Shown one piece after another: positions 51,179 to 60,767 of a stretch of DNA of 64,000 nucleotides. The position numbers and the translations under genes are program-made. The stretch spans positions 2,359,693-2,423,692 of the forward strand of contig NZ_SDHX01000001.1 of the NCBI RefSeq assembly GCF_004118375.1, written 5' to 3'. How positions within the stretch are numbered: the first letter of the stretch is position 1; each line of letters begins with the position of its first letter. The notes below the pieces were generated by a model. That model was not told where the DNA came from, did no database searches, and saw only the letters and a list, made by a program, of their open reading frames with translations. The stretch is from Oleiharenicola lentus (GTDB taxonomy: Bacteria > Verrucomicrobiota > Verrucomicrobiia > Opitutales > Opitutaceae).

Positions 51179-52033
51179 TCAGATCTTCACGTGCGCGAGC
51201 AGCGCCCGCTCCTCTTCCGGAGGCAGCGGCTCGCCGTTGGTCTCGAGAATGCGCCGCGCCAGCGGTTCGAGCTGCTCGGCCGGCACCTCCACGACCCCGA
51301 TGCCGTCGCGCCACTGGATGACGGGCAGACCCCAGGCGAGGTTTTCGAGAATGACATCGGCGTAAGCCTTGCGCATGGCCCGCATGGAGGCGCGGGTTTC
51401 CCAATCGTAGTCGGCTGTCTGCGGTTCCTCCACCCGGTCGGTCGGCTTATCCGTCATGATCGGGATGTTAGCTGCCGCCTCGATCATCACAAGTCGGGAA
51501 ATATCCGAGACCCTCAGCTTACCGTCCTTTTCAGAAACGATCAGGTGGGGATTTTGACCGGTGTTGTCGTAAATCCGCCAGTCATTCACTAGCGGCCGGT
51601 AATGCTCCAGCAGGAGCCGCACCCCCTTGCCAAACCGCCTTTGCTGCACCTCGTCCGGAATGTCGTGTCCGCCTTTCCGAACGCGCTGCTTCACCCGGTT
51701 GCGCGTGATGTCCAGATTCGGAATCCACAGGTAATCCAAGCGTATGCGATAACCCGCCTCCTTCATCTCCCGCAACAGGTGGGTGTAACCGTAGCCCGTG
51801 AGCGTGGTCTCGAACGAGAAACTCTGACGCGATTCAAAAAGCTCCCGCAGCCTGTTCAGCATGATCCGGCGGGCTTGAAACGAGACCGCATCAGGAGCGA
51901 AAGGCGACAGCCCGGCCGCGATCAAATCCGCGTTCACGAACTCCCGGCAGCGCATTTCCTCGGGCAGGAAGCGCTTCACATAGGTGGATTTTCCCGCCCC
52001 GTTCGGCCCGGCGATGATGAAGAGGTCCGGCAT
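51179..52033 (-). CDS. zeta toxin-type kinase with C-terminal partner-like tail
   Basis: This 284-residue P-loop kinase has Walker A GPNGAGKST (residues 9-17) and the zeta-family region with DYLWIPNLDITRNRV, RVRKGGHDIPDEVQQRRF and YRPLVNDWRIYDN (about 100-156). Zeta proteins phosphorylate UDP-N-acetylglucosamine or related substrates. The C-terminal 70 residues (211-284) contain MRAMRKAYADVILENLAWG and VIQWRDGIGVVEVPAE, resembling the small separate proteins often encoded beside such kinases. No separate antitoxin is visible. One 60-base line in the middle has only 29 G+C, so this gene is AT-richer than its neighbours. Confidence 0.8.
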   Translation of the reverse strand: MPDLFIIAGPNGAGKSTYVKRFLPEEMRCREFVNADLIAAGLSPFAPDAVSFQARRIMLNRLRELFESRQSFSFETTLTGYGYTHLLREMKEAGYRIRLDYLWIPNLDITRNRVKQRVRKGGHDIPDEVQQRRFGKGVRLLLEHYRPLVNDWRIYDNTGQNPHLIVSEKDGKLRVSDISRLVMIEAAANIPIMTDKPTDRVEEPQTADYDWETRASMRAMRKAYADVILENLAWGLPVIQWRDGIGVVEVPAEQLEPLARRILETNGEPLPPEEERALLAHVKI

Positions 52034-52078
52034 CGCGTGAATCTGACGCGATGCCGGTGAAAACGTCAACCGACCCGC

Positions 52079-53659
52079 TCAGCCTGAAATCAGGCTCTCG
52101 CCGGTCATCTCCGCCGGCTTAGGCAGGCCCATGAGGTGGAGCACGGTCGGCGCGATGTCGGCGAGACGGCCGCCGCTGCGCATCTTGGTCTTCCCGGCGG
52201 CAAGCCCCTCGCCCACCGCAAACACCTCGACGAGATTCAGCGTGTGCGCGGTGTGCGGGCCGTTGACGGTCGGATCCCACATCTGTTCGGCGTTGCCGTG
52301 GTCGGCACAGACGACCGCCTTGCCGTTCTTCGTCGCAAGGGCGGCGAGCAGTTCGCCCACCCCGGCATCGGTGGCCTCGACGGCCTTGATGGTCGCGGGC
52401 AGCGAACCGGAGTGACCGACCATGTCGGGATTGGCGTAGTTGACGACGATCAGGCCGTATTTGCCGGAGAGAATCGCCTCCTTGGCGAACTTCGTCACCT
52501 CGGCGGCGGACATTTCCGGTTGCAGGTCGTAGGTCGGCACCTTGGGACTCGCCGGGCAGGCCCGCTCTTCGCCGGGGAAAGGGTCCTTGCGGTAATTGTT
52601 GAAGAAGAAAGTCACGTGCGGGTTCTTCTCGGTCTCGGCGCAGCGGAACTGCGCGATCCCGGCGGCGGCCACCACCTCGCCGAGAATGTTTTTCAGCTTC
52701 TCGGGCTTCGGCGACACGACGTGCACCGGCAGGCCGGACTCGTATTCGGTCATCGTCGCGTAGTAGAGGTCCAGCTTCGGGCCGCGATCGAAGTCCTTGA
52801 AGCCGTCGAGCACGAAGGCCTTGGTGATCTCCCGCGGGCGGTCGCCGCGATAGTTGTAGAAGAGCACGGCGTCGCTGTTCGCGATGGTGGCGACCGGCTT
52901 GCCCTCGGCTCCAACAATCCACGTCGCGGGCACAAACTCGTCGCCGACCTGGGTCGGGCTCATCGGTTTGTCGTAGTAGGCCTGCACGGCCGCCTCGGCA
53001 CTCGGCGCCTGGGCCGCGGCCTTGCCGACCAGCATGTCGTAGGCCTTTTGCACGCGCTCCCAGCGGTTGTCGCGGTCCATGGCCCAGAAGCGGCCGCAGA
53101 CCGTGGCGATCCGGCCCACGCCGATGGCCTTCATCTGGGCTTCCACCTGCTTGATGTAGCCGAGTCCGCTCGACGGCGGCGTGTCGCGACCGTCGGTGAA
53201 GGCATGCAGGTAAACCTGCGTGAGGCCGTCTTCCTTGGCCTGGCGGAGGATGCCGTAGAGATGCTCCAGCATGCCGTGGACGCCGGCATCGGACACGATG
53301 CCGAACAGGTGCAGCTTGCCGCCACCCGACTTGACGCGGGCAACGAGATTTTTCCATACTGCGTTCGTGGCGAGACGCTTTTCGGAAAAAAGCTTGTTCA
53401 GACGGACGAGTTCCTGGTCCACGATGCGACCGGCGCCGATGTTTTCGTGGCCGACCTCGCTGTTGCCCATCACCCCGTCGGGCAGACCGACATCGAGTCC
53501 CGAGGCCCGCACCAGGGCATGCGGGTATTGGGCATGGAGCGCGTCGTCGCAGGCCTTCTTGGCCAGGGCCACGGCGTTGGTGACATCCTGCTTGGGATCG
53601 GGATTCTTGCCCCAGCCATCACGGATGACCAGGAGGACGGGCGGACGGGCTGAACTCAT
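52079..53659 (-). CDS. gpmI: 2,3-bisphosphoglycerate-independent phosphoglycerate mutase
   Basis: This 526-residue enzyme interconverts 3- and 2-phosphoglycerate in glycolysis. The first metal site is in LLVIRDGWGKN, the catalytic serine in VMGNSEVGHENIGAG, and the second metal site in VVCADHGNAEQM, all typical of the alkaline-phosphatase superfamily mutases. The phosphatase-like and transferase domains alternate as expected (transferase part about 85-310 with HAFTDGRDTPPSSG). The length fits the family. It is divergent from the small orphan gene at 53769. Confidence 0.95.
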   Translation of the reverse strand: MSSARPPVLLVIRDGWGKNPDPKQDVTNAVALAKKACDDALHAQYPHALVRASGLDVGLPDGVMGNSEVGHENIGAGRIVDQELVRLNKLFSEKRLATNAVWKNLVARVKSGGGKLHLFGIVSDAGVHGMLEHLYGILRQAKEDGLTQVYLHAFTDGRDTPPSSGLGYIKQVEAQMKAIGVGRIATVCGRFWAMDRDNRWERVQKAYDMLVGKAAAQAPSAEAAVQAYYDKPMSPTQVGDEFVPATWIVGAEGKPVATIANSDAVLFYNYRGDRPREITKAFVLDGFKDFDRGPKLDLYYATMTEYESGLPVHVVSPKPEKLKNILGEVVAAAGIAQFRCAETEKNPHVTFFFNNYRKDPFPGEERACPASPKVPTYDLQPEMSAAEVTKFAKEAILSGKYGLIVVNYANPDMVGHSGSLPATIKAVEATDAGVGELLAALATKNGKAVVCADHGNAEQMWDPTVNGPHTAHTLNLVEVFAVGEGLAAGKTKMRSGGRLADIAPTVLHLMGLPKPAEMTGESLISG

Positions 53660-53768: not shown

Positions 53769-54077
53769 ATGACACTCATCATCCGTGACCAGCTCACCTG
53801 TCCGCCGACGTGGTTCGCCTCCTACCGGGATCTCACCCTCTACTGCGCCGTGATGCTCAAGATGGATATCGTCATCGAGTCCGCCGACGCCGACACCTAT
53901 TACCGATGGATCAAGCCGCGCGGCGGCATGGATTTCGTGGAGGACATCGTGCGCCCCGGCTCGGAACCCGGTGTGCATCTCGACATCGAGCGCCAGTTTC
54001 CCTCCACGATCATCACCGACCGGATTGCGCCGGAAAACGTCCATCGGCTGATTGCGGCCATCCGCTCGGCCGCCTGA
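53769..54077 (+). CDS. small hypothetical protein
   Basis: This 102-residue protein reads MTLIIRDQLTCPPTWFASYR at the start and ends RIAPENVHRLIAAIRSAA. It has no membrane segment and no motif I recognise, though the balanced composition, a plausible AAGGG ribosome site about 10 bases upstream and separation from the kinase gene (convergent, stop 8 bases away) support real coding. Function unknown. Confidence 0.6.
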   Translation: MTLIIRDQLTCPPTWFASYRDLTLYCAVMLKMDIVIESADADTYYRWIKPRGGMDFVEDIVRPGSEPGVHLDIERQFPSTIITDRIAPENVHRLIAAIRSAA

Positions 54078-54084
54078 GCCCTGA

Positions 54085-57000
54085 TCAGCCGGCGGGCAAC
54101 AATTCGCGCAAGACGCGGGCCACTTCGCCCACCTCATAGGGTTTGGCCATGACGGCGCTGAAGCCGTGCTGCCGGTAGTTGGCCAGCACGGGATCGCTTG
54201 AGTAACCGCTGGAGACAACCGCCTTCACCTGCGGGTCCAGTTCCCGCAGCTTGCCCAGGGCAGCCAGCCCGCCCATGCCGCCCGGGACGGTCAGATCAGT
54301 GATCACCAGGTCGTAGGCCCGGCCTGTCTGCAGGGCCGACTGGTATTTGGCGACCGCCTCCGCCCCGTCCGCGGCGCAATCCACCTTCAGACCGAACCGC
54401 TCGAGCAAGGAGGTGGCCATGTCGCGGATGATCTGTTCGTCGTCCATGAACAACACGCGCCCGGCAAACTGATGGGTCTTCGTGGTGGCCCAGGGGGTGT
54501 TCGTGTCCGGCTTGGCCACCGCGCAGTTGAGCGCCGGCAGCCAGAAGCGGAAGGTTGTGCCCTGGCCGACCTGGGACTCCACCTCAATGTGGCCGCGATG
54601 CTTGCGGATGATCGAATACACGGCCGCCAAACCCAGCCCGGTACCGGTTTGCTTTGTGGTGAAATAGGGATCGAAGATGCGCGAAAGATTCTCCGGATTG
54701 ATGCCGGCACCGCTGTCGGAGATGGCGATCTGGATATAATCCCCGGCAGCCAGGCCGGGGTGGGCCAGGTGCGCCTGCGGGTCGTTGCGTGCCGAGATTC
54801 TCAGGCTGCCGCCCTTGGGCATGGCCTGCACCGAGTTGATGACGAGATTCTGCACCACGCGACCGATCTGCCCCTTGTCGGCATCGGCGGCCCAGAGGTC
54901 GGGGGCGAGGTCGTAACTGGCCTTGATGGATGAGCCGTGCAGGGCGAATCCAGCCATCTCCCGCACCACGGTTTCGAGCTGAATGGCCGCGCGAACCGGA
55001 TCGCCGCCCTTGGCAAAAGTCAGGAGCTGCTGCGTGAGATCGCGCGCGCGCAGAGCCGCCTTTTCCGCCGATCGCAGGCTCGCCATGGCCGGACTGCCGG
55101 GCGCGATATCCAGCTGGGCCAGGGCCAGGTTGCCCATGACCGCGGTGAGGATATTGTTGAAATCATGGGCGATGCCCCCGGCGAGCACACCCACCGATTC
55201 GAGCCGGGTGGCGCGGATGAGTTCCTGCTCGAGGCGGTCCTGTTCCGTAACGTCGCGCATCACCAACACCGTGCCGGTGACCTGGCTGTCGGCTGAACGG
55301 ATCGGCGCGCAGCAGCCCTCGATCAGGCGACGGCGACCATCCGCCCCGACCAGGCGGGTCTGCCCGGGTAGGTCGGCGATCAGGTCGCCCTGCGCCACCC
55401 GGGCGATCGGGAGCAATACTCGCGCACCGTCGCGGACATTCTCCAGGGTGCATACCTCCTGCACCGGACGCCCCACGCAATCCGTCCCGGCGCGTCCGAC
55501 GAGGTTGAGCGCCGCCGGATTGGCAAACTGGACAACCCCGGCACCGTCGGTCGTGAATACCGCCTCGTTCATCGCCCGCAAGGTGACCGCAAGCCGCTCC
55601 TTCTCATTGGCCAGCGCCGCTTCGGCGCCGCGTTGGGCCGTGATGTCCACCGCCACCCCCACCAGCGAAAAGCGGTTAACGTCCAGTTTCCTGATGGTCA
55701 CATTCTCGCGGATCCACACCGCTGCTCCATCCGGCTGGATGATGTGAAACACCTGCTCATAGCCGGGCAGGCCCTGCTCCAGCGCCTGCCGGCACCGCGC
55801 ATTCATCTCCTGCCACTCGGGAATGGTGAACTCCCGCCAGAGCCCGCGAGCCGAGGCAGGCCGCCCGGAGCCGTAAAGCCGATCGCCCAACAGCGAGGGT
55901 TGGATGTTGAATTCCCACTTCCAGCTGTCCTTTTCCAGCATGGTTGTGGCTTCCCAGAGCAGACAGTCCGCGCGGGTCAGAATCTCGAGCAGTCGTTGCT
56001 CGCTCGCTTGCAGGGCGAGTTCGGAGGTCCGCTGCGCCGTGATGTCCACCGCCACCCCCACCAGCCAAAACCGATTCTCGCCCAGCCGGTTCACGGTCAC
56101 GTTTTCGCTGATCCACGTGGTGGCACCTTCACGGCTGACGAAACGGAAAACCTGATCGTAGCCGAGTGAACCGCCCAGAATCGCGTCCCGGCAACGCCGG
56201 TCCATTTCCGGTCTCTCCGGAACCCGCTCCACCGGCCACATGGAAGCACCGGCCAGCGGCTCCGGTGCACCGGTGAGCCGCTGATAAAACAGCGAAGGCT
56301 GGATGGTATGTTCCCACTGCCAGCCGTCAGGCAGCAGGGAGACAGTGGATTCCCAGAGAAGGCAGTTGGCGCGCCCCAGAAGCTCGCTCAGTCGTTTCTC
56401 GCTGGCTTGCCGGGCCTGTTGCAATTCCCGTTGGGCGGTGATGTTGGCGATTATGCCGGTCAGCTCCCAATGATCCGGTCCCAGCGACTTGATGCTGACG
56501 TTTTCCTGCAGCCAGATGTCGCCTGCAGGATGCAGGCAATGGAAGACCTGCTCGTAGGCGGTCCGACCCTCCAGCATGGCCCGCCGCGAGCGGTCACGCA
56601 TCTCCCAAAACTCCGGCACCTGTTCTGGTGTCCAGGCAAAATGACACTCGCCGACGGGCTCCGTGCCGAAGATGCGCCGGTAGAGTTGCGAACGCGGGGT
56701 GAAGACCTGCCAGTTAAAATCGTCCGGGCCCATTCTGCGGCACTGCCCCTGCCAGATCATGCAGTCGGCCCCGTCCAACAACACCGCGAGCTGCACCTCG
56801 CTGGCCCGGTGGGCCTCCTCGGCCCGCCGCTGGGCGGTGATGTCGGTGATCACACCCGCCATGCGGAATCGGTTCACGCCATCCCGCTGGATGGAGACGG
56901 TCTCCCGCAGCCAGATGTCCCCGGATGTGCGCACCACGCGAAATTCCTGGGTGTAGCCGGGTGCGCCAGCCTTGAGGGCCGCCAGGGTTCGCGTGACCAT

Positions 57001-58515
57001 GTCCGGATATTCCGGGATCTGCAGTTCCGACCAGTGCAGCTGCAACGGAGCATCTCCGGTTTCGCCAAATATCCGGCGGTAAAGCGCGGAAGGAGGGATG
57101 TATTGGTCCCAGGTCAGCGTGTCGTCGGCCTGGAGGAGCACCGATGCCTCCCACAGCATGCACTCGGCGACATTCAGGAGATTGCCCAGACGTTCCTGGC
57201 TGCTGCGCCAGGCCTCTTCCACGCGGTGCCGGTCGCTGATGTCGGTGATGATGCCGACCAGTTCCCACTCGTTGGGGCCCGCTGGCGATATGGTGACCGT
57301 TTCGGTGAGCCAGATCGGGCGATCACTCCGGGGCACGTGAAACACCTGCTCGTAACCGGGTGCGGATTCGGTGATGGCGCGATAGGAGCGGGCCTCCATC
57401 TCCTGAACTTCCGGCACGCCCATCTCGCCCCACGAAAAGCCCCGGTCCCCGTCGGGATCGTGGCCGAAAATCTTTCGGAAGAGCTGCGAGGCAGGCACGA
57501 ACAGTTTCCAGTCAAGCCGGCCATCCGGCTGGCGCTGGATCCGGCCCTGCCAGATCATCGAGTCGGCGCGCTCCAACAAGTGGGCCAGCGTCGTCTCGGT
57601 GCGCTTCTGCGCGACCTCCGCCTCGATCTGCGGTGTGATGTCGGTGACGACGCCAACAAGACTCCAGGTCCCGGTTTTCTCAGGCGTGATGGAGACCCGC
57701 TCGTGCAGATGGAAGGTCGCACCCGCAGGCGTGACGACGCGGAAAACCTGCTCGTAACCCGGGGCATTGCCGTGAATCGCCCGGCTGCTGTGCGCATCCA
57801 TCTTCGCCTGATCCGGCATGGCCAGGCCATCCCAGAAACCCCGCTCAGGATTGAACTGCCGGTGCGCCCCAAAGAGGCGCTCGGACAGCCGGGAGCGTGG
57901 CACATCGAAATGCGGCCAGAGCAACTTGCCTTTCTCTTCGGTCACCATGGCCCGCCACAGCATGCATTGGGCGTTGGCGAGGATGCGCTCCAGGCCCTGC
58001 TCACTCTGCCGCCTGGCCATCTCCGCCTCGCGCTGCGCGGTCAGATCCGTGATCAGGCCCACCAGACGGTAGTGATCCAGCCCGAGGCGGGTAATGGAGA
58101 CGGTCTCCTGGAGCCAGTAGGTCCGTCCGTCCCGAATCGCCTTGAACTCCTGTTGATAGCCGGCGTGCCCGCGCTGCAAGGCCTCCCGCGCGCGCAGGTC
58201 CATCTGCTCCCGGGTGTCGATTTGGAACTGATCCCAGAAATTGGCCGGACCGACGGTGAGTTCGGGCCCGAACAGTTGCCGGCAAAACGCCGACGGATGC
58301 AGCTTGATTTGCCAGGTCCAATCGTCGGTCTCGACCTGCACATCCGCTTCCCAGAGCGCACACTGGGCCTGTTCGATGAGTTCCGACCTCTGCCGGACCC
58401 GCTGTTCCGCCTCGGTTTCCGCCCGCCGCCGCTGCCGGCGATGCAGCCACCAAGCCGCACCGGCCACGACCAAGGCTGTGGTAGCCATGGACAGAACTGT
58501 CGCGACGGAGAACAT
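54085..58515 (-). CDS. hybrid histidine kinase with seven tandem PAS-like repeats
   Basis: This 1476-residue kinase has an N-terminal membrane helix (about 3-23) and then seven repeats of about 133 residues in 45-963. Each has a C-x-[LI]-W signature (Cys at 52, 184, 452, 585, 718 and 851; Ser 319 in the third), a W-rich strand, an S..xR.LFG-like turn, and a PAC-like end with GYEQVF, IWLxExVSI and LVGVxTDITAQ. A canonical PAS follows (about 970-1090). The HisKA domain has the phospho-accepting His 1117 in AGGIAHDFNNIL, then an ATPase with DSGAGI and GTGLGL, and a receiver with Asp 1407. The stop is 8 bases from the convergent gene. The ATG at 58515 gives a clean membrane anchor. Signal and target unknown. 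Confidence 0.9.
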   Translation of the reverse strand: MFSVATVLSMATTALVVAGAAWWLHRRQRRRAETEAEQRVRQRSELIEQAQCALWEADVQVETDDWTWQIKLHPSAFCRQLFGPELTVGPANFWDQFQIDTREQMDLRAREALQRGHAGYQQEFKAIRDGRTYWLQETVSITRLGLDHYRLVGLITDLTAQREAEMARRQSEQGLERILANAQCMLWRAMVTEEKGKLLWPHFDVPRSRLSERLFGAHRQFNPERGFWDGLAMPDQAKMDAHSSRAIHGNAPGYEQVFRVVTPAGATFHLHERVSITPEKTGTWSLVGVVTDITPQIEAEVAQKRTETTLAHLLERADSMIWQGRIQRQPDGRLDWKLFVPASQLFRKIFGHDPDGDRGFSWGEMGVPEVQEMEARSYRAITESAPGYEQVFHVPRSDRPIWLTETVTISPAGPNEWELVGIITDISDRHRVEEAWRSSQERLGNLLNVAECMLWEASVLLQADDTLTWDQYIPPSALYRRIFGETGDAPLQLHWSELQIPEYPDMVTRTLAALKAGAPGYTQEFRVVRTSGDIWLRETVSIQRDGVNRFRMAGVITDITAQRRAEEAHRASEVQLAVLLDGADCMIWQGQCRRMGPDDFNWQVFTPRSQLYRRIFGTEPVGECHFAWTPEQVPEFWEMRDRSRRAMLEGRTAYEQVFHCLHPAGDIWLQENVSIKSLGPDHWELTGIIANITAQRELQQARQASEKRLSELLGRANCLLWESTVSLLPDGWQWEHTIQPSLFYQRLTGAPEPLAGASMWPVERVPERPEMDRRCRDAILGGSLGYDQVFRFVSREGATTWISENVTVNRLGENRFWLVGVAVDITAQRTSELALQASEQRLLEILTRADCLLWEATTMLEKDSWKWEFNIQPSLLGDRLYGSGRPASARGLWREFTIPEWQEMNARCRQALEQGLPGYEQVFHIIQPDGAAVWIRENVTIRKLDVNRFSLVGVAVDITAQRGAEAALANEKERLAVTLRAMNEAVFTTDGAGVVQFANPAALNLVGRAGTDCVGRPVQEVCTLENVRDGARVLLPIARVAQGDLIADLPGQTRLVGADGRRRLIEGCCAPIRSADSQVTGTVLVMRDVTEQDRLEQELIRATRLESVGVLAGGIAHDFNNILTAVMGNLALAQLDIAPGSPAMASLRSAEKAALRARDLTQQLLTFAKGGDPVRAAIQLETVVREMAGFALHGSSIKASYDLAPDLWAADADKGQIGRVVQNLVINSVQAMPKGGSLRISARNDPQAHLAHPGLAAGDYIQIAISDSGAGINPENLSRIFDPYFTTKQTGTGLGLAAVYSIIRKHRGHIEVESQVGQGTTFRFWLPALNCAVAKPDTNTPWATTKTHQFAGRVLFMDDEQIIRDMATSLLERFGLKVDCAADGAEAVAKYQSALQTGRAYDLVITDLTVPGGMGGLAALGKLRELDPQVKAVVSSGYSSDPVLANYRQHGFSAVMAKPYEVGEVARVLRELLPAG
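55627..58383 (-). repeat. coding repeat: seven tandem PAS-like units in the histidine kinase
   Basis: The seven units occupy residues 45-963. Signature cysteines (one serine) are spaced 132, 135, 133, 133, 133 and 133 residues, so each unit is nearly 400 bases. The units are diverged copies, not exact DNA repeats. Confidence 0.85.
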
Positions 58516-58616: not shown

Positions 58617-59498
58617 TCAGCGCGCCCCCGGCCCGCTGGCGGCGAGGAAATCCAGCAGCGCCTGGGCGGTCCCGGCCAGCGGCCGGCCCGAGCGATGAAC
58701 CACCCCGACCGACCGGGTCATCCCGGCCAGTGCGCGGCAAACCACCGCTTTATCCCGGTCGCGCCGGGCCATGGCGGGAATGATCGACACCCCGCGCCCC
58801 TCGGCCACGAAGGCCAGCACGGTTTCCAACTGCGCGCTGCGAAAACTCACCTGCGGTGCAAAGCCGTTCAGCCGGCAGAACTGCAACGCCTGTCCCGCAA
58901 GGCAATGGCCCTCCTGCATGAGGATGAACGGCTCCTGCTCCAGGTCGTCGAGGGTCAGTCTCCGCTTGGCCGCCAGCCGGTGCCGCGCCGGCAGGGCCAC
59001 CAGCAGCGGCTCATCGAAAAATTCCCTGGCCTGCAACCCGGCCCGCTCCACCGGAAGACTGAGGAGCGCCAGATCCACCTCCTTGCCCAGCACGGCTGCC
59101 ACCAACCGGTTGGTCGTGTCCTCGTGCACCACGACCTCGATGCCGGGAAACTTCTCGGCAAACGCGCGCAGTCGTGCCGGCAGGAAATAGGGCGCCACGG
59201 TCGGTAGCGCCCCCAGCACGACCCGGCCGCGCACCAACCCGCGCACTTCGCGCACCTTCTCCCGGGCCGCCTCCACTTCCTCCAGGGCCCGTTCCGCATG
59301 GCCGCGAAAGACCTCTCCGGCCGGAGTCAGGGCCACCTCGCGCTTGGTGCGTTCGAACAGCCGCTCGTCCAGCTCCTCCTCCAGCTTTTTGATCTGCTGG
59401 CTGAGCGAAGGTTGCGCCACATGGCACTGCTCGGCCGCACGGCTGAAGTTGCGCGTGCGGGCGACGGCGAGGAAGTAGCGAAGTTGATGCAGCTCCAT
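58617..59498 (-). CDS. oxyR: LysR-type regulator, OxyR
   Basis: This 293-residue regulator has the LysR helix-turn-helix in the first 60 residues (FLAVARTRNFSRAAEQCHVA and QPSLSQQIKKLEEEL). The redox pair of OxyR is conserved at C199 and C208 in GHCLAGQALQFC, the same numbers as in E. coli OxyR, so hydrogen peroxide sensing through a disulfide is expected. It is divergent from hemH, with a palindrome between the two starts. In E. coli, hemH belongs to the OxyR regulon, which agrees with the location. Confidence 0.88.
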   Translation of the reverse strand: MELHQLRYFLAVARTRNFSRAAEQCHVAQPSLSQQIKKLEEELDERLFERTKREVALTPAGEVFRGHAERALEEVEAAREKVREVRGLVRGRVVLGALPTVAPYFLPARLRAFAEKFPGIEVVVHEDTTNRLVAAVLGKEVDLALLSLPVERAGLQAREFFDEPLLVALPARHRLAAKRRLTLDDLEQEPFILMQEGHCLAGQALQFCRLNGFAPQVSFRSAQLETVLAFVAEGRGVSIIPAMARRDRDKAVVCRALAGMTRSVGVVHRSGRPLAGTAQALLDFLAASGPGAR

Positions 59499-59559: not shown

Positions 59560-59726
59560 GATGCAGCCATGAAGTCCAACGCCCTTGATCGGGAAATTCG
59601 GCCTTGGCCGGCCAGTTCGCTGGCGCCGGTTCAGCCCCGTTGGTTTGCAGCCGCGGCATCGACCGGCCCGTTTCCCCGCTCCGGTTGACTTTGCCCGCCG
59701 TTCCGCCACCTCTCTTGCCCAACACC

Positions 59727-60767
59727 ATGTCCAAGTCCGCCGTCCTGCTGCTCAACCTCGGTTCACCCGATTCGACCTCCGTCCCGGATGTCCGTCGCTA
59801 CCTGGAGGAATTTCTCGGTGATGAACGCGTGATCGACAAGCCGGCCATCGGCTTCCTGCGCTCGCTGCTGGTCAAGCAGATCATCTGCCGCTTCCGCGCG
59901 CCCAAGTCCGCGCACGCCTACGAAAGCATTTGGACGCCCGAGGGTTCGCCGCTGATCCTCACCAGCAAGCAAGTGCAAGCCAAGCTGCAGACGCGCACCA
60001 CCCTGCCGGTTGAACTGGCCATGAACTACGGCAATCCCTCCATCCCCGACGTGTTGCGCCGTCTCGTCAACCAGGGCGTGGACCGCCTGCTCCTCTTCCC
60101 GCAATACCCGCACTACGCCATGTCGAGTTGGGAGACCGTGGTGGTGAAGGTGCAGCGCGAGGCCGCGGTGATCGCGCCCGGTCTGAAGATCGAATGCGTG
60201 CAGCCCTACTACGGCGATGCCGATTACATCGAGGCCCTCGTCGCCAGCGCGAAACCCTACCTCGCCCAGCCGCACGATCACCTGCTTTTCAGCTACCACG
60301 GCATTCCGGTGCGCCACCTGACCAAGGCCGACAGTTCGCACGCGCATTGCCAGGTCGTCCCCGATTGCTGCACCACCTGCTCGCCGGCGCACGCCACCTG
60401 TTACAAGGCCCAAGTCACGCGCACCACGCAGCTTTTCGCGGAGAAAGCGGGCCTCAAACCCGGATCTTGGTCGATCACTTTCCAGTCGCGCCTTGTCGGC
60501 GAACCCTGGCTCTCGCCGTACACCGATCACGCATTTGAGGAAATGCCCGGTCGCGGCATCAAGCGCCTGCTCGTCATCACGCCAGCCTTCGTCACCGACT
60601 GCCTCGAGACCCTTGAGGAAATCCGCGTCGAGGGCGCCGAGGATTACAAGAAGGCCGGCGGTGAGGATTTCACCCACATTCCGTGCCTCAATGACCAGCC
60701 GGTGTGGATCGATTTTCTCGATAAGCGCATCCGGGCTTGGCAGGAAACGGGCGCCGTCTCGGCCTGA
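59727..60767 (+). CDS. hemH: ferrochelatase with cysteine-rich insertion
   Basis: This 346-residue enzyme inserts iron into protoporphyrin in haem synthesis. The catalytic histidine is H191 in LLFSYHGIPVRHL, and the family glutamate is E294 in DCLETLEEI. The usual DPYPC segment is replaced by AHCQVVPDCCTTCSPAHATC, with five cysteines at 208, 214, 215, 218 and 225, probably ligands of a [2Fe-2S] cluster as in a known class of ferrochelatases with internal clusters. The ATG at 59727 (MSKSAVLLLNLGSPDS) is chosen over the in-frame TTG at 59604. The gene is divergent from oxyR and convergent with mpl. Confidence 0.94.
   Translation: MSKSAVLLLNLGSPDSTSVPDVRRYLEEFLGDERVIDKPAIGFLRSLLVKQIICRFRAPKSAHAYESIWTPEGSPLILTSKQVQAKLQTRTTLPVELAMNYGNPSIPDVLRRLVNQGVDRLLLFPQYPHYAMSSWETVVVKVQREAAVIAPGLKIECVQPYYGDADYIEALVASAKPYLAQPHDHLLFSYHGIPVRHLTKADSSHAHCQVVPDCCTTCSPAHATCYKAQVTRTTQLFAEKAGLKPGSWSITFQSRLVGEPWLSPYTDHAFEEMPGRGIKRLLVITPAFVTDCLETLEEIRVEGAEDYKKAGGEDFTHIPCLNDQPVWIDFLDKRIRAWQETGAVSA

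What the first reader, a model, noticed from the sequence alone, without database searches (positions are those of the whole stretch)
54085..58515. Histidine kinase with seven near-equal PAS-like sensor units each starting with a Cys-x-[Leu/Ile]-Trp motif
Seven units with signature residues at 52, 184, 319, 452, 585, 718 and 851 (spacing 132-135) precede a canonical PAS domain. The N-terminal C-x-L/I-W, the second tryptophan about 14-17 residues later and the GYEQVF / IWLxExVSI end are shared, whereas ordinary PAS repeats are diverse. The third unit has Ser in place of Cys. The regular array suggests a cooperative or avidity sensor, perhaps binding a cofactor through the cysteines. This is inference from the pattern. 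It may be a lineage-specific PAS_3 subfamily that expanded by internal duplication.
Basis: partly seen in the sequence, partly recalled or inferred. Interest (0 to 1): 0.75.

Follow-up and report, generated by a model that had tools for sequence, protein, structure and literature searches.

The report
Kinase with seven-unit PAS sensor array
A bacterial sensor protein has a sensing half built from seven copies of one unusual sensor domain; the chain is real and its length differs between relatives, but what it senses is unknown and the conserved cysteine looks more like a hinge residue than a cofactor holder.

Summary
In detail: seven units of 132-135 aa, motifs exactly at residues 52, 184, 319, 452, 585, 718 and 851. 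They form a rather sharply bounded PAS subfamily that Pfam covers poorly. In the own genome the profile finds the seven units plus one in another kinase (152-195 bits), then drops to 25 bits. The family is patchy in one bacterial family (24 of 150 genomes; by named records Opitutaceae), with remote members in Poribacteria. Over 142 units two tryptophans (141 and 142) and a glutamate (141) are near-invariant; the cysteine is in 111. Eight loci carry the kinase beside ferrochelatase with 2 to 7 units (one cut by its contig); in 11 of 19 other ferrochelatase loci that enzyme lies near phosphoglycerate mutase without the kinase between, so the linkage is background gene order. AlphaFold2 gives each unit a PAS fold in which the Cys (Ser in unit 3) is the first residue of strand A-beta, next to the incoming helix. 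Heme, FAD and LOV determinants were not found. Likely role: a cytoplasmic multi-PAS column with an aromatic/acidic pocket per unit and a hinge thiol. Cofactor binding through the cysteines is not supported. Moderate interest.

The parts
54085..58515 (-). hybrid histidine kinase, 1476 aa: TM helix, seven family PAS units, one ordinary PAS, HisKA, HATPase_c, receiver
58444..58515 (-). N-terminal hydrophobic helix (aa 1-24), then RRQRRR: probable single membrane anchor with the array in the cytoplasm
   Evidence: Kyte-Doolittle maximum 1.79; helix 2-49 at low confidence; topology inferred
58009..58404 (-). PAS unit 1 (aa 38-169), Cys52
57604..58008 (-). PAS unit 2 (aa 170-304), Cys184
57205..57603 (-). 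PAS unit 3 (aa 305-437), Ser319 in place of Cys; the congener G113 has Ser at its matching unit
56806..57204 (-). PAS unit 4 (aa 438-570), Cys452
56407..56805 (-). PAS unit 5 (aa 571-703), Cys585
56008..56406 (-). PAS unit 6 (aa 704-836), Cys718
55609..56007 (-). PAS unit 7 (aa 837-969), Cys851
55237..55596 (-). ordinary PAS domain (aa 974-1093; PAS_9/PAS_4/PAS), 17-26% identical to the seven units
55006..55185 (-). HisKA (aa 1111-1170; 26.2 bits, just under the Pfam cut-off 26.9), with HDFNN
   Evidence: motif read
54532..54879 (-). HATPase_c (aa 1213-1328)
54118..54456 (-). receiver domain (aa 1354-1466)
58617..59498 (-). LysR-type regulator upstream of the kinase on the same strand; also present in the ortholog locus L103 (89% identical)
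59604..60767 (+). ferrochelatase (hemH), neighbour by background synteny
53769..54077 (+). conserved 102-aa protein without a Pfam match, between kinase and iPGM
52079..53659 (-). phosphoglycerate mutase (iPGM) on the other side of the kinase

Best explanation
A membrane-anchored, CckA-like hybrid histidine kinase with a cytoplasmic column of seven PAS domains of one distinct family, joined end to end by helices, followed by an ordinary PAS and the kinase-receiver core. Shown: family, order, fold by prediction, conservation, unit-number variation. Inferred: the kinase is a dimer; each unit has a pocket lined by W18, W32, Y84, Q86, F88 and E101 on the core face of the sheet; ligand state shifts the sheet and is passed through the D-I-T end of I-beta and the linking helix to the next unit and finally to HisKA. 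The Cys at the helix/A-beta junction most likely tunes this hinge, by packing or as a thiol, and does not hold a cofactor. Units gained or lost along one locus change the length and the number of inputs of the column.
For: Domain scan. Family boundary in the own genome: 152-195 bits, then 25 bits; in 387 genomes of the phylum with the wider profile: members at 113 bits or more, the next match 69, then 55 and less, and 25 of those 32 lower matches begin at profile position 19 or later. Conservation over 142 units: W18 141, W32 142, E101 141, Y84 138, Cys15 111. AF2 pair model pLDDT 93.1, pTM 0.74, helix 123-146 running into the next unit. In the array model every A-beta begins at the Cys/Ser residue (52, 184, 319, 452, 585, 718, 851) and five of six inter-unit links are helices of 23-24 residues. 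Alternating hydrophobic/polar pattern puts W18, A20, V22, W32, Y84, Q86, F88, L99, E101, V103 and I105 on one face. Best PDB folds are PAS domains: FixL, LOV-HK, 3mr0. Three orthologs scanned share the C-terminal PAS-HisKA-HATPase-receiver part; orthologs have 2-7 units at one site.
Against: No coordinates could be read, so the pocket face and the position of the Cys side chain rest on strand parity. The array model is weak as a whole (pLDDT 73.9, pTM 0.32) and the link between units 3 and 4 is broken and low in confidence, so the column is not shown. The family edge is not perfectly clean: the 69-bit match (L197, G034) aligns end to end, keeps W32, but lacks the Cys, W18 and the Glu. No ligand, partner regulator or regulon is known. 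A Cys kept in 111 of 142 units, also by distant relatives (21 of 27), may do more than tune a hinge. In Poribacteria-type units further Cys residues occur (C90 in 20 and C119 in 15 of 27), which could favour a redox role there.
Confidence: 0.55

Rival explanations
1. Redox array: the Cys residues at the helix/sheet junctions form disulfides across the dimer or react with quinones, as cysteines of the ArcB PAS do, so the kinase reads redox state with several thiols in series.
For: Cys kept in 21 of 27 distant units and in 61 of 67 non-first array units. Junction position. Interprotomer disulfides of PAS cysteines in ArcB, as stated in passages of PMC8174306.
Against: Natural Ser, Ile, Val, Ala or Phe at the site; unit 3 of this very kinase has Ser; the first listed unit of arrays lacks Cys in 18 of 28. 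At the three positions examined (15, 90, 119) 89 of 115 near units have Cys at 15 only. Cross-dimer proximity is not shown.
Confidence: 0.2
2. The array is mainly a spacer or oligomerisation rod (length and dimer stability) and only the last units or the ordinary PAS sense.
For: Unit number at the hemH/iPGM site varies 2, 2, 4, 5, 6, 7, 7 between relatives, as expected if single units are dispensable. Linking helices.
Against: The putative pocket residues W18, W32 and E101 stay near-invariant across units, single-unit kinases included; a pure spacer would not need an invariant Glu on a hydrophobic face.
Confidence: 0.15
3. Cofactor array: each unit binds a heme, flavin or metal through its Cys.
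For: Conserved Cys beside Trp.
Against: No conserved His or Trp in F-alpha, which PMC10468136 names as heme and FAD determinants (passages); the Cys is at the start of A-beta, at the helix junction, and is replaced in 31 of 142 units; linkage to ferrochelatase is background synteny.
Confidence: 0.07

Closest known systems
CckA (tandem-PAS hybrid histidine kinase of Caulobacter)
   Same: tandem PAS before a HisKA-HATPase-receiver core; the C-terminal half matches the NCBIfam CckA model HisKinCckABruc at 260.6 bits; different PAS domains carry different inputs in CckA (PMC4853435, passages)
   Different: far below the model's cut-off of 1000 bits; seven units of one PAS family plus one ordinary PAS instead of two PAS domains; no link to a CtrA pathway was examined
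Pfam PAS_3 (PF08447)
   Same: C-terminal half of the unit; the whole protein scores 86 bits
   Different: only 28 of 50 units are listed as matching it at E up to 10 (HMMER's filters drop weak ones); the PAS_3 profile lacks A-beta and B-beta (PMC10468136, passage), where the Cys and both Trps lie
3mr0, PAS of a Burkholderia thailandensis sensory box kinase
   Different: the sequence match covers profile positions 56-132 only
FixL tandem PAS (8js5, 8js6)
   Different: no conserved His in F-alpha here
Histidine kinases with very many PAS domains (up to 19 in cyanobacteria, PMC10468136, passage)
   Same: large PAS number in one kinase
   Different: whether those PAS domains form one family was not examined

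Membership tests
PAS fold superfamily | A'alpha - A-beta - B-beta - C/F helices - G-H-I-beta order | tested here: met
   (DSSP order in all seven units of the models)
Pfam PAS_3 | unit scores above the Pfam gathering score | tested here: inconclusive
   unit 4 reaches 28.1 bits against 25.6; 28 of 50 units listed at E<=10; scores of the other members were not listed
Heme PAS (FixL/DosP type) | His in F-alpha | tested here: not met
   His at unit positions 59-81: at most 10 of 115 near and 4 of 27 far units; the commonest His column anywhere (position 100, H-beta) is 40%; determinant from PMC10468136 (passages)
FAD PAS (NifL/MmoS/Aer type) | Trp in F-alpha | tested here: not met
   Trp at positions 59-81 in at most 9 of 115 near and 2 of 27 far units
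LOV | conserved flavin-reactive Cys (its place in the helical region is recalled) | tested here: not met
   the commonest Cys columns are 15, 90, 119, 73 (7%), 24, 42, so none conserved in the helical region; the family Cys is the first residue of A-beta
hybrid histidine kinase | HisKA, HATPase_c and receiver domains | tested here: met
   HATPase 88.7 bits, receiver 55.8 bits, HisKA 26.2 bits (just under 26.9)
CckA equivalog | NCBIfam CckA model above its cut-off | tested here: not met
   260.6 against 1000 bits
ArcB-like thiol PAS | redox-active Cys forming interprotomer disulfides | not testable with these tools
   needs biochemistry

The most novel reading that the evidence does not exclude
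A PAS family not captured by Pfam models, with a Trp-Trp-Tyr-Gln-Glu pocket for an unknown small (perhaps cationic or aromatic) ligand and a thiol at each inter-unit hinge, used in Opitutaceae as a homogeneous array whose unit number is evolutionarily adjustable at one locus: a sensor whose gain is set by copy number and by thiol state.
Probability: 0.2. Interest if true: 0.7.

Novelty: new variant of a known kind. Interest (0 to 1): 0.42.

Why it matters
Many PAS domains have no known input. A family with two near-invariant Trps and a near-invariant Glu on one inferred face, occurring both singly and in arrays of 2-7 at an orthologous locus, is a natural series for asking what the number of like sensors does to a kinase. 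It also shows that a Pfam model lacking the first two strands can hide a real family signature.

Tried and rejected
Heme sensing because of the ferrochelatase neighbour: rejected as evidence. Of the 20 ferrochelatase loci fetched, L190 is an array locus. In 11 of the other 19, ferrochelatase and phosphoglycerate mutase lie within 1.8 kb of each other without the kinase between them; two more are 3-5 kb apart; six show no nearby iPGM match. In one of the six (L184, G029) an array kinase lies about 12 kb away; two loci are from one genome (G071).

Cys loss in the first unit of arrays: 18 of 28 first listed units lack Cys against 6 of 67 later ones (Fisher p 7e-8). In L077, L078 and L108 the first listed unit follows a partial or weak unit that had been dropped, so it is not the true first; L107 counts as single because its masked unit was left out. 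The rows are related; on the tree the fewest changes are 9 and the independent-pairs test is not significant. A lead only.

Spacing alone: another kinase of the genome has a regular PAS array of similar identity, so regularity alone was not used as evidence.

Edge of the family: L197 (69 bits) keeps W32 but not Cys, W18 or Glu; L198 (54 bits) reads GIVW, without Cys and W32. I did not count either as a member.

Plasmid collection with a Poribacteria unit: no match. Literature: no held paper has both 'Opitutaceae' and 'PAS domain'; the searches on PAS arrays (4 papers), copy number (5), pocket (3), tandem PAS (175, 20 listed), redox Cys (11) and DIT/N-cap (16, 12 listed) were read as listings with abstract starts only, apart from the passages cited. 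That does not prove the family undescribed; the clusters of PMC10468136 may contain it.

Limits: in large genomes genome search scored only the first 10 to 49 candidates, by call, so counts are lower bounds. Positions are those of window unit 4. Dropped before counting: units under 80 bits; matches under 40 bits, pieces under 110 aa and identical sequences; from the tree, pieces under 125 aa and the masked L107 unit 1. A first count of Cys in A-beta of ordinary PAS domains (1 of 30) used a misplaced window and is replaced by 3 of 30.

Full report
Observation. The minus-strand ORF 54085-58515 encodes 1476 aa. Pfam finds PAS_3-like stretches, an ordinary PAS (974-1093), HisKA, HATPase_c and a receiver. 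The units are 27-53% identical; units 6 and 7 (53%) and 3 and 5 (44%) are closest.

A bounded family. A profile of the seven units finds in the own genome these seven and one unit in a 1744-aa kinase (152 bits), then falls to 24.8 bits. In the bacterial family 24 of 150 genomes, own included, have members at E<=1e-15. With a 50-unit profile: order 9 of 273 (two outside the family), phylum 9 of 387 (two of them remote). A scan of named records gave 17 loci: 16 labelled Opitutia, Opitutae, Opitutaceae, Opitutus or Verrucomicrobia/Verrucomicrobiota, and one Candidatus Poribacteria. The Poribacteria genome has 12 matches; with a wider profile 7 of 84 genomes of its phylum, itself included, have members. 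With that profile the Verrucomicrobiota matches separate into 113 bits or more and 69 bits or less; 25 of the 32 lower ones begin at profile position 19 or later, that is, in the part shared with other PAS domains. The 69-bit match keeps W32 but not the Cys, W18 or the Glu. Other phyla were not sampled.

Signature. In 100 units of the first survey (7 window, 93 from 40 loci) W18, W32 and E101 are in 100 of 100, Cys15 in 76. Over 115 near and 27 far units: W18 115+26, W32 115+27, E101 115+26, Cys15 90+21. Kinases with one listed unit have Cys in 19 of 20, later array units in 61 of 67, first listed array units in 10 of 28; the six later exceptions, window unit 3 among them, are three pairs at matching positions in two genomes each. 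None of 30 ordinary PAS domains of the genome has the motif.

Evolution. In a tree of 118 units, units at matching positions in different genomes often group together: unit 1 with unit 1 of G113 and L103 (100/99), unit 2 likewise (99/89), unit 3 with unit 3 of G113 (99/73), unit 4 with unit 2 of L108 (99/96), unit 7 with units of L108 and G113 (99/94), unit 6 beside them (99/90). Many duplications are therefore older than these species (inference); 37 of 115 inner branches are drawn open. The kinase lies at one site, beside ferrochelatase and, where the contig shows it, phosphoglycerate mutase, in the window (7 units), G113 (4), G003 (7), G052 (6), G020 (2), G064 (2), L104 (5) and L103 (at least 3; contig end). 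In 11 of 19 other ferrochelatase loci the two enzymes are close neighbours without it, so the kinase was inserted there or lost several times; either reading is open.

Function. Heme, FAD and LOV determinants (as given in PMC10468136, passages) were not found. Redox thiols as in ArcB (passages of PMC8174306) remain possible. The best reading is a cytoplasmic multi-PAS column on a membrane anchor (topology from the hydrophobic N-terminus and RRQRRR), working like CckA and other multi-PAS kinases in that several PAS inputs act on one kinase-receiver core (PMC4853435, passages). Ligand and output are unknown.

Novelty. Multi-PAS kinases with up to 19 PAS domains are known (PMC10468136, passage). 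New here, as far as these searches reach, is the bounded family with its signature and the homogeneous arrays of variable length at one locus.

Noticed in passing
window 53769-54077 (+): 102-aa protein without a Pfam match, 64-83% identical near phosphoglycerate mutase or ferrochelatase in 12 of the 36 loci compared (L190 repeats the G064 locus of L060), with and without the array: a conserved unknown.
   Followed up: partly
L171, L173-L181, L183, L185-L189: A stretch 32-51% identical to part of the window kinase lies within a few kb of ferrochelatase in 16 of the 19 other ferrochelatase loci: another kinase linked to hemH, not identified further.
   Followed up: no
L039 (G000:C2:1224000-1239000): Second kinase of the genome with one family unit: CHASE3, several ordinary PAS, HisKA, HATPase, receiver, Hpt.
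   Followed up: partly
window 51179-52069 (-): Zeta-toxin/AAA_33-like P-loop protein next to iPGM; also beside iPGM in L104 (71% identical).
   Followed up: no
L086, L087, L112-L139 (Verrucomicrobiota family f53 and Poribacteria): Far units carry two further frequent Cys (C90 in 20, C119 in 15 of 27), 12 of 27 with all three: a possible thiol cluster.
   Followed up: partly
L043, L055, L058, L062, L063, L065, L071-L076: First-unit class with [ND]-[IV]-[LF]-x-W-W in place of D-C-L-L-W-Q.
   Followed up: partly
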